From NCBI GenBank assembly GCA_947088345.1, contig CAMUGE010000006.1, positions 1 to 64,000 of the forward strand: a stretch of 64,000 bases of DNA, written 5' to 3'. The first letter of the stretch is position 1. Each line of letters starts with the position of its first letter. The notes under the pieces are model-generated. The model made no database searches. It worked only from the letters and a program-made list of their open reading frames with translations, and was not told where the DNA came from. Shown here piece by piece: positions 2,952 through 26,286 of the stretch. This DNA is from an uncultured Roseburia sp. GTDB lineage: Bacteria > Bacillota > Clostridia > Lachnospirales > Lachnospiraceae. The translations under genes were made by a program, and so were the position numbers.

Positions 2952-3467
2952 ATGACAGAAATGGATGATTTATTGCAGGTAGGCGTGATTACAACAACAC
3001 ACGGACTGAAAGGGGAAGTAAAGGTATTCCCGACTACAGATGAAAAAGAACGATTTCAGGAACTAAAACAGGTGATCTTAGATACCGGAAAAGAGAAGCT
3101 GGACCTGGAAATTGAGAACGTTCGTTATTTTAAGAATCTGGTAATTTTAAAATTCAAAGGAATCAACGATATCAATGATGTCGAACCATATAGAAAAAAA
3201 AGTCTCTATGTCACACGGGAGAATGCCGTGGAGTTAAAAAAGAACGAATATTTTATCGCGGATCTGGTAGGACTTTCCGTCTTTGAGGAAGACGGGGAGG
3301 AGCTTGGCGAACTCTATGACGTGCTGCAGACAGGAGCAAACGATGTCTACTGCGTCAAAAAGGACGGTCGGGAAATTTTGATTCCGGCAATCCGGGAGTG
3401 TATCCGAAATGTTGATATTGCGGCGGGGAAGATGACAGTACATCTTCTGCCGGGATTGCGTGATTGA
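2952..3467 (+). CDS. rimM: Ribosome maturation factor RimM
   Basis: A protein of about 171 residues needed for 30S head maturation, binding S19. The N-terminal RimM beta-barrel contains [16 protein letters not shown]. The C-terminal PRC-barrel contains [18 protein letters not shown] and the terminal GREILIPAI. ATGs occur at 2946, 2952 and 2961. The first is directly abutted by AGGA (2942-2945), so 2952, six bases from that site, is preferred. The stop is followed without a gap by trmD, as in most bacteria. Confidence 0.94.
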
Positions 3468-25846: not shown

Positions 25847-25875
25847 TTGTGTTTATCCGTGTGCTGTGTTATAGT
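25847..25875 (+). promoter_or_regulatory. Promoter of the antisense RNA of the toxin locus
   Basis: TTGTGT (25847-25852), 17-bp spacer, TATAGT (25870-25875). Transcription would start near 25882 and run towards the 3' end of the - strand toxin mRNA. Confidence 0.6.
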
Positions 25876-25881
25876 AAAAAA

Positions 25882-25978
25882 GGGAAGCCACGCAAGCGGC
25901 TCTACCCCATTATAATATTTGACGAAACAAATCAGGCAGCCGTCGCTATTGGGAGTAGTGGCGGCTGTTTCTATGCAG
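25882..25978 (+). ncRNA. Putative antisense antitoxin RNA (type I system)
   Basis: A predicted RNA of about 95 nt. A small hairpin near the 5' end (AGCCAC/GCGGCT, one mismatch) is followed by a 12-bp stem CAGCCGTCGCTA/TAGTGGCGGCTG (including G-U pairs, about 25939-25969) and then TTTCTAT, which reads as an intrinsic terminator. It is convergent with the toxin gene, whose mRNA, if it extends past its stop at 26059, would carry the complementary strand. This is the arrangement of par-type loci with convergent RNAs. The boundaries and function are predicted. An overlapping 69-codon frame (25849-26058) starts upstream of the predicted RNA start and is unlikely to be translated. Confidence 0.5.
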
Positions 25979-26058
25979 ATCCGTGCGGCGGCAATATGCC
26001 GTTAAAGCAGTGCACGTGTTTCGCGGTGAGTAGCAGAGAAAGACATTTCCCTGCTTGA

Positions 26059-26145
26059 TTATGTCCTTTTGAATATTGTGTAGCACAATCCGACAAGGGC
26101 AACAAGAAATATTCCGGTTTGAATCAATTCAGAATATGAAATCAT
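26059..26145 (-). CDS. Holin-like type I toxin peptide
   Basis: A 28-residue peptide, MISYSELIQTGIFLVALVGL followed by CYTIFKRT: a short polar N-terminus, one membrane-spanning helix and a basic tail. This matches the 'putative holin-like toxin' family, small membrane-depolarising peptides of type I toxin-antitoxin loci. The start at 26145 has an excellent AGGAGGGC site with GGAGGGC at 26161-26155. A longer frame from 26286 is open but lies upstream of that site and includes the leader hairpin, so it is rejected. The gene has its own promoter, a structured leader and a convergent antisense RNA. Confidence 0.75.
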   Translation of the reverse strand: MISYSELIQTGIFLVALVGLCYTIFKRT

Positions 26146-26180
26146 CGCTGCATCGCCCTCCTTTCTCGAAAGATTTTCTA

Positions 26181-26207
26181 TTTGGAGGGCTGCAGAAGCC
26201 CTCCAAA
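26181..26207 (-). promoter_or_regulatory. Leader hairpin that can pair with the toxin ribosome binding site
   Basis: In the toxin mRNA, TTTGGAGGGCT and AGCCCTCCAAA form a perfect 11-bp stem with a 5-nt loop. The 5' arm contains GGAGGGC, identical to the ribosome binding site 20 nt downstream (26161-26155). The 3' arm (GCCCTCC) can therefore pair either with the 5' arm or with the ribosome binding site, giving two mutually exclusive structures. Confidence 0.65.
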
Positions 26208-26257
26208 ATAAGAAAGAGGGCAAAGCCGCCAGTGGCTCTGTGGTTTCCCATATTGTC

Positions 26258-26286
26258 ATTATAGCATATCCTGTCGCAATTTTCAA
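26258..26286 (-). promoter_or_regulatory. Promoter of the toxin mRNA
   Basis: On the - strand: TTGAAA (26286-26281), 17-bp spacer, perfect TATAAT (26263-26258). The start would be near 26251, giving a leader of about 105 nt that includes the regulatory hairpin. Confidence 0.75.

What the first reader, a model, noticed from the sequence alone, without database searches (positions are those of the whole stretch)
25847..26286. Complete type I toxin-antitoxin-like locus with convergent antisense RNA
A 28-residue holin-like membrane peptide on the - strand has a consensus promoter (TTGAAA-N17-TATAAT) and a strong ribosome binding site. A + strand promoter (TTGTGT-N17-TATAGT) drives a predicted ~95-nt RNA ending in a 12-bp stem and T-rich tail, convergent with the toxin mRNA. 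Par-type loci with two convergent RNAs have this plan. The locus is intergenic, between asd and a subtilase, with no plasmid features, and is the best-supported undescribed system in the window.
Basis: partly seen in the sequence, partly recalled or inferred. Interest (0 to 1): 0.75.

Follow-up and report, generated by a model that had tools for sequence, protein, structure and literature searches.

The report
Gut-bacterial peptide toxin with RNA antidote
A tiny gene for a membrane peptide and a short RNA made from the opposite DNA strand form what looks like a toxin-antidote pair; copies with the same RNA folding recur in one family of gut bacteria, and the pair seems undescribed although its kind is well known.

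Summary
At 25847-26286 lie a 28-aa hydrophobic peptide gene (26059-26145, -), its promoter, a convergent + strand promoter and a predicted ~94-nt RNA with a terminator hairpin. It is a conserved module: a second copy exists in the same genome, and a covariance model of the + strand RNA hits 67 of 299 genomes of the family but very few outside it. Peptide and RNA travel together: 93 of 100 peptide-seeded loci carry the RNA adjacent and antisense; 32 of 34 RNA-seeded hits have toxin sequence adjacent. The toxin transcript's two ends pair, with compensatory changes, and its Shine-Dalgarno sequence is masked in silico beyond shuffled leaders. The peptide family matches Hol_Tox, although the window copy scores below the Pfam cut-off. 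Best reading: a type I toxin-antitoxin locus working like Bacillus bsrG/SR4 or bsrE/SR5, not a par/Fst locus, since its terminator hairpin is kept for one strand only. Transcription and toxicity were not testable. New member of a known kind; no description surfaced in eight literature searches.

The parts
26258..26286 (-). toxin promoter TTGAAA-N17-TATAAT, extended -10
   Evidence: conserved in 80 copies
26216..26249 (-). 5' leader box of toxin mRNA (GGGAAACCACAGAGCC..GGCGGCTTTGCCCTC) that pairs with the 3' end; contains a terminator-like site 26240-26221
26181..26207 (-). leader hairpin TTTGGAGGGCT/AGCCCTCCAAA; its CCCTCC arm can instead pair with the Shine-Dalgarno GGAGGG
   Evidence: inverted repeat; CCCTCC/GGAGGG pairs in 98% of cells in 41 copies, almost invariant
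26155..26163 (-). Shine-Dalgarno AAGGAGGGC
   Evidence: masked in silico
26059..26145 (-). toxin ORF, 28 aa, one hydrophobic segment, Hol_Tox-like
   Evidence: 5 synonymous and 2 non-synonymous codon changes against its G032 orthologue
25977..26058 (-). stretch between toxin stop and antisense terminator, absent or much shorter in the relatives aligned
   Evidence: alignments
25936..25971 (+). antisense terminator hairpin and short T-tail
   Evidence: strand-specific G.U
25882..25975 (+). predicted antisense (antitoxin) RNA, about 94 nt
   Evidence: covariance model hit 25870-25974, 79.9 bits (the window row was in the training set)
25847..25875 (+). antisense promoter TTGTGT-N17-TATAGT
   Evidence: conserved -35 TTG in 79 copies; not listed by the consensus scan
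25876..25908 (-). 3' end of toxin mRNA: pairs with the 5' leader box and contains the likely terminator GAGCCGCTTGCGTGGCTT-CCC-T6

Best explanation
A chromosomal type I toxin-antitoxin locus. The - strand gene makes a ~375-nt mRNA (median 275 nt in 80 copies) for a membrane peptide of about 28-31 aa. Its 5' and 3' ends pair (helices of 13 and up to 15 bp) and its Shine-Dalgarno sequence is held by upstream CCCTCC/CCCTC elements, so the full-length mRNA is poorly translated. A ~94-nt RNA from the convergent promoter is complementary to the mRNA's 3' untranslated end; it anneals there, displaces the 5'-3' helix, lets the leader hold the Shine-Dalgarno sequence more tightly in most relatives, and probably exposes the duplex to RNase III. 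If the antisense RNA fails, processed mRNA is translated and the peptide inserts in the membrane. Shown: sequence elements, conservation, compensatory pairing, co-occurrence. Predicted by folding only: Shine-Dalgarno masking and its tightening. Inferred from named relatives: transcription, toxicity, annealing, RNase III, activation by processing.
For: Hol_Tox matches 12 of 12 family peptides, best 3.1e-8; the second own-genome copy passes the Pfam cut-off, 26.1 vs 23.3. Antisense RNA adjacent in 93 of 100 peptide-seeded loci; 25 of the 93 were in the model's training set, leaving 68 of 75, some of them near-identical to training rows. Toxin sequence adjacent in 32 of 34 RNA-seeded hits. 5'-3' duplex: cognate mean -44.0 vs -37.8 kcal/mol for permuted partners, 0 of 2000 as low, 93 loci. 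Central pair: of 80 copies 72 scored, 64 Watson-Crick of four types, 6 G.U, 2 mismatched. Covariation score of the whole tested structure 0.168 vs 0.114 shuffled, 0 of 500. Shine-Dalgarno unpaired 0.037 vs 0.248 with shuffled leaders, lower in 37 of the 39 copies scored (of 40 taken from 80). Leaving out the antisense-covered end lowers it from 0.188 to 0.065, in 65 of 78.
Against: No transcript or toxicity data. The window copy is atypical: tail KRT instead of KGKKK, an ~80-nt extra stretch, weak T-tail, the second antisense hairpin not predicted (-0.7 kcal/mol), peptide below the Pfam cut-off, and no tightening of Shine-Dalgarno masking without the 3' end (0.097 to 0.105). 8 of 80 copies unscored for the central pair. 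Helix 2 has columns mostly unpaired in the alignment (31/421, 32/420). One of five measures (further pair types) was reached by 10 of 500 shuffles. Permutations and shuffles do not remove relatedness; the structure was taken from one of the rows; copies were chosen by patterns at both ends. A terminator-like site lies in the toxin leader.
Confidence: 0.83

Rival explanations
1. A small regulatory or lysis-related membrane peptide, not a toxin of its own host, whose synthesis is held down by an antisense RNA in the same way (compare the competence inhibitor ComI or phage holins).
For: 4 of 12 family members match NCBIfam ComI, best 2.5e-4; 8 of 12 match PHROG 3488 'holin', best 2.2e-4; toxicity untested.
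Against: 10 of 12 match the type I toxin PepG1 (best 1.2e-4) and 12 of 12 Hol_Tox. Tandem copies and decayed copies fit an addiction-like element better. No match of the second copy's peptide among phage records.
Confidence: 0.11
2. A small mobile repeat: inverted near-identical ends (promoter plus leader) spread by transposition or recombination, the pairing being a by-product of the inverted ends.
For: Both RNAs begin with nearly the same sequence; copies are sporadic, multi-copy and in tandem; the second own copy lies near a phage integrase fragment.
Against: Departures from pairing are G.U on the toxin strand rather than A.C: 131 vs 55 in 41 copies (22 of the 55 in one column), 142 vs 38 in 80 copies, as expected for selection on the toxin RNA; the ORF varies mainly at third positions (10.2 vs 5.1 and 2.7 differences per pair). 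Target duplications were not looked for; an empty site could not be compared, because asd was found within 1.5 kb of the subtilase in only 2 of 30 loci fetched.
Confidence: 0.05
3. The window copy itself is a decaying locus of an otherwise functional family (compatible with the best explanation for the family).
For: Extra ~80 nt, altered tail, weak T-tail; other decayed copies exist (L176, L193, second hit of L182).
Against: Its orthologue in G032 keeps the ORF with 5 synonymous to 2 non-synonymous changes and the antisense RNA.
Confidence: 0.15

Closest known systems
bsrE/SR5 and bsrG/SR4 of Bacillus subtilis
   Same: Toxins of 30 and 38 aa from mRNAs of 255-260 and 294 nt; antitoxin pairs with the mRNA 3' end; SR4 also changes structure at the ribosome binding site (PMC6562991, passages). 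B. subtilis is one of 2 of 14 control genomes that match Hol_Tox.
   Different: Antitoxin here about 94 nt (81-107 in the 76 of 80 copies measured) against 163 and 180 nt; found in a Lachnospiraceae-type family; antitoxin 5' box nearly copies the toxin mRNA's 5' leader; no Rfam match at gathering score.
txpA/RatA of Bacillus subtilis
   Same: antisense RNA binding the 3' end of a membrane-peptide mRNA
   Different: TxpA 59 aa, RatA 222 nt
aapA/IsoA of Helicobacter pylori
   Same: 5'-3' long-distance pairing plus transient Shine-Dalgarno hairpins, one anti-SD inside the ORF (PMC6733600, passages); here the codons GCC and CTT at A15-L16 are used in 67 and 69 of 80 copies
   Different: Unrelated host group; toxin homology not tested; a role of the ORF codons here is a guess
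par(pAD1)/Fst
   Same: Convergent promoters, small hydrophobic peptide
   Different: No bidirectional terminator, no PXXXG(C) motif in the window peptide
Clostridioides difficile CD2517.1-RCd8 and kin
   Same: Convergent overlapping toxin and antisense RNA (PMC6563280, the section on C. difficile read)
   Different: Toxins of 34-53 aa, reported without sequence homology to other systems; not compared by sequence here

Membership tests
Type I toxin-antitoxin system | small hydrophobic peptide gene | tested here: met
   28-31 aa, hydrophobic core
Type I toxin-antitoxin system | antisense RNA complementary to the toxin mRNA | tested here: met
   at sequence level only: promoter, terminator and model hit on the opposite strand
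Type I toxin-antitoxin system | both RNAs are made | not testable with these tools
   no RNA data
Type I toxin-antitoxin system | peptide toxic, antisense RNA protects | not testable with these tools
   needs expression
Pfam Hol_Tox (PF16935) | score over the curated cut-off, window peptide | tested here: not met
   17.6 bits vs 23.3
Pfam Hol_Tox (PF16935) | score over the curated cut-off, second copy in the same genome (79% identical) | tested here: met
   26.1 bits; 12 of 12 family peptides match at E<=1
[quoted passage not shown]
   at sequence level
BsrG/BsrE/TxpA-like loci | structured ribosome binding site in the mRNA (describes it for bsrG) | tested here: met
   in silico only
BsrG/BsrE/TxpA-like loci | toxin homologous to BsrG, BsrE or TxpA | tested here: inconclusive
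   no direct comparison; B. subtilis and the second copy both match Hol_Tox
par/Fst | bidirectional terminator shared by both RNAs | tested here: not met
   hairpin mismatched on the toxin strand in 40 of 41
par/Fst | PXXXG(C) motif in the toxin | tested here: not met
   no proline in the window peptide
par/Fst | direct repeats DRa/DRb at the translation start | not tested
   only inverted repeats were searched
PepG1 (NF041589) | score over the curated cut-off | tested here: not met
   17.2 vs 70 bits
any Rfam family | score at gathering threshold | tested here: not met
   0 matches in the window; four chance-level matches below threshold around the locus

The most novel reading that the evidence does not exclude
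A family-restricted RNA antitoxin whose 5' part is a near copy of its target's own 5' leader: it swaps into the toxin mRNA's 5'-3' helix in place of the leader, and the freed leader then clamps the Shine-Dalgarno sequence. The antidote would act as a strand-swap switch, not only as a trigger for degradation.
Probability: 0.35. Interest if true: 0.55.

Novelty: new member of a known kind. Interest (0 to 1): 0.42.

Why it matters
If true, a compact toxin-antitoxin module is spread through a family of gut bacteria (67 of 299 genomes, nearly one genome per genus; 27 of the 67 with more than one RNA hit), with an antitoxin RNA that Rfam does not list. It gives a natural data set for how a toxin mRNA is kept silent by end-to-end pairing, and an annotation model for genomes where so short a gene is easily skipped.

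Tried and rejected
Par/Fst membership: rejected on terminator and motif. Phage or plasmid element: the second copy's peptide has no match in 72,556 plasmid or 50,697 phage records (BLAST with 30 aa is insensitive), but 23 loci were found in viral contigs, not examined for being host flanks. Empty-site comparison: not possible; of 48 of 60 genomes with the subtilase, 30 loci were fetched and asd lay within reach in 2. Variable hairpin of the antisense RNA as recognition loop: 57 of 77 copies fold it below -2 kcal/mol and 40 of those 57 carry YUNR in the loop, but YUNR had no chance control; the first version of that script matched only 12 copies through a pattern error. Cross-talk between the two own copies: cognate duplexes -202 and -234, non-cognate -128 and -122 kcal/mol, so cross-talk is not excluded. 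Distant peptide relatives (L129, L133-L135) lack a hit of this antisense model; L138-L140 were not given to that call (limit of 100 sources). Of 116 copies (103 fetched loci and 13 own or genus copies) 93 gave both transcript ends by pattern and 23 were dropped; 80 non-redundant remained; 41 chosen by hand went into A2 and 32 into A3.

Full report
What is there. The finding's elements were re-read in the sequence: toxin promoter 26286-26258, Shine-Dalgarno 26163-26155, 28-aa ORF 26145-26059, convergent promoter 25847-25875, RNA start near 25882, terminator hairpin within 25936-25971. The consensus scan lists the toxin promoter but not the + promoter, whose -35 has 3 of 6 matches. The neighbours are a semialdehyde dehydrogenase (asd) and a subtilase. 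A likely terminator of the toxin mRNA, GAGCCGCTTGCGTGGCTT-CCC-TTTTTT, lies at 25902-25876, so that mRNA would cover the entire antisense RNA. The same scan calls a terminator-like site in the toxin leader, 26240-26221; it may mark early termination or just the pairing arms.

It is a family. The genome holds a second copy, G000:C2:81021-81333, with peptide MVTYSDLIQTGIFIVALVGLCYTIFKGKKK. A DNA search finds matches in 18 of 60 same-genus genomes, own included. One of them, G032, has the module in the same place between subtilase and asd. A covariance model of the antisense RNA (R1, 32 sequences) hits 67 of 299 genomes of the family. Among 60 relatives it hits 13, all in the genus (13 of 36), and none of the 24 genomes from other families of the order. 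In the order sample it hits 2 of 146, both of the own family; in the class sample 6 of 245, two of the own family and four weaker (E 2.4e-5 to 9.7e-4). Samples include some genomes of the own family; how many is not fully listed.

Peptide and RNA belong together. Of 100 peptide-seeded loci (80 named-genome and 20 of 23 viral-contig loci) 93 have the RNA hit directly downstream and antisense; the seven without are L064, L128-L130 and L133-L135, of which L128 and L130 end at the contig edge. 25 of the 93 were in the training alignment. From the RNA side, the 30 loci returned hold 34 strong hits: toxin sequence is adjacent in 32 and absent in L175 and L184; in three of the 32 (L176, L193, second hit of L182) it is damaged. 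Of six hits in the class outside the family, two have a toxin-like peptide (L203, L208), four do not at any convincing score.

RNA structure. The toxin mRNA's 5' box pairs with its 3' end. Cognate duplexes average -44.0 kcal/mol against -37.8 for permuted partners (0 of 2000 as low, 93 loci). The middle base of CCA[N]AG and CT[N]TGG changes in step: 64 Watson-Crick pairs of all four types, 6 G.U and 2 mismatches among 72 scored of 80. On 41 sequences the tested structure of 44 pairs (5'-3' helices, Shine-Dalgarno hairpin, terminator hairpin) has 18 pairs with changes on both sides against 8.7 in shuffles; 11 of the 18 are in the 5'-3' helices and 7 in the terminator hairpin. Relatedness is not removed by that control and the structure came from one row. 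Strand asymmetry helps: in the 5'-3' helices departures are G.U on the toxin strand 131 times and A.C 55 times (22 of those in one column), whereas in the terminator hairpin the toxin strand has A.C 44 times and G.U never, i.e. that hairpin is kept for the antisense RNA. In the unguided alignment of 80 copies the figures are 2041 Watson-Crick, 142 G.U, 38 A.C, 77 other mismatches and 548 gap positions. The pair CCCTCC/GGAGGG that masks the Shine-Dalgarno sequence is nearly invariant and gives no covariation evidence; its support is an unpaired probability of 0.037 against 0.248 with shuffled leaders, lower in 37 of 39.

Mechanism. In all four folded states tried the Shine-Dalgarno sequence is mostly paired (mean unpaired 0.05-0.19, 91 loci). 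Leaving out the antisense-covered 3' part lowers exposure from 0.188 to 0.065, in 65 of 78 loci; for the window copy it does not fall. The most likely course: a silent full-length mRNA; antisense RNA anneals to the 3' end, frees the leader to clamp the Shine-Dalgarno sequence and marks the duplex for RNase III; loss of antisense lets processed mRNA be translated. Annealing, RNase III and processing are inferred from bsrG/SR4, txpA/RatA and aapA/IsoA (PMC6562991 and PMC6733600, passages seen).

Comparison with the known. The peptide family matches Hol_Tox (12 of 12), the type I toxin PepG1 (10 of 12) and ComI (4 of 12), and a phage 'holin' PHROG (8 of 12); the window peptide alone is below the Hol_Tox cut-off. 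Size and plan fit bsrE/SR5 and bsrG/SR4. The review of clostridial type I systems (PMC6563280, its C. difficile section read) tells of TxpA-like and Fst-like sequences in C. bolteae and C. asparagiforme, of further in silico candidates in several Clostridium species, and of experimental proof in C. difficile only. Eight searches of open full texts, of which I saw listings and abstract beginnings plus passages of PMC6563280, PMC7699646, PMC6733600, PMC6562991, PMC7472228 and PMC11318856, showed no paper describing this module. Two papers looked up by identifier (recalled as the T1TAdb database paper and the 2010 survey of type I toxins) were not held, so a prior listing there cannot be excluded.

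State of the window copy. It differs from the family by a KRT tail, about 80 extra nucleotides after the stop codon and a weak T-tail, yet against its G032 orthologue it shows 5 synonymous and 2 non-synonymous codon changes, so it is probably still constrained.

Noticed in passing
L009:2448-2783 and about 3022-3334: The second own-genome copy lies about 240 bp from an ORF that is a phage integrase fragment (PF00589, 2.5e-13).
   Followed up: partly
G029:C81:13831-15119; G339:C11:17252-18095; L191:808-2013: Tandem arrays of the module: 4 toxin-half matches within 1.3 kb, 3 antisense hits spaced 371 bp, 4 antisense hits, the last cut off.
   Followed up: partly
L053, L189: Near-identical copies whose 5' leader is deleted so that the ORF follows GGGAAACCAGAGAGCC directly; how they stay silent is unclear.
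   Followed up: no
L175:400-506 and L184:145-248: Antisense RNA with no adjacent toxin: solitary antitoxins or decayed loci.
   Followed up: no
window 26240-26221 (-): Terminator-like site within the toxin mRNA leader; possible early termination of the toxin transcript.
   Followed up: no
window 26153-26142 (-): An upstream ATG gives a three-codon frame ATGCAGCGATGA overlapping the toxin start; some relatives have an ATG there too but not this frame.
   Followed up: no
L203, L208 (G690, another family of the class): Weak antisense hits beside a related peptide (MYVTYSDLFQFCLVLIGLAGLF...), hinting at a wider superfamily.
   Followed up: partly
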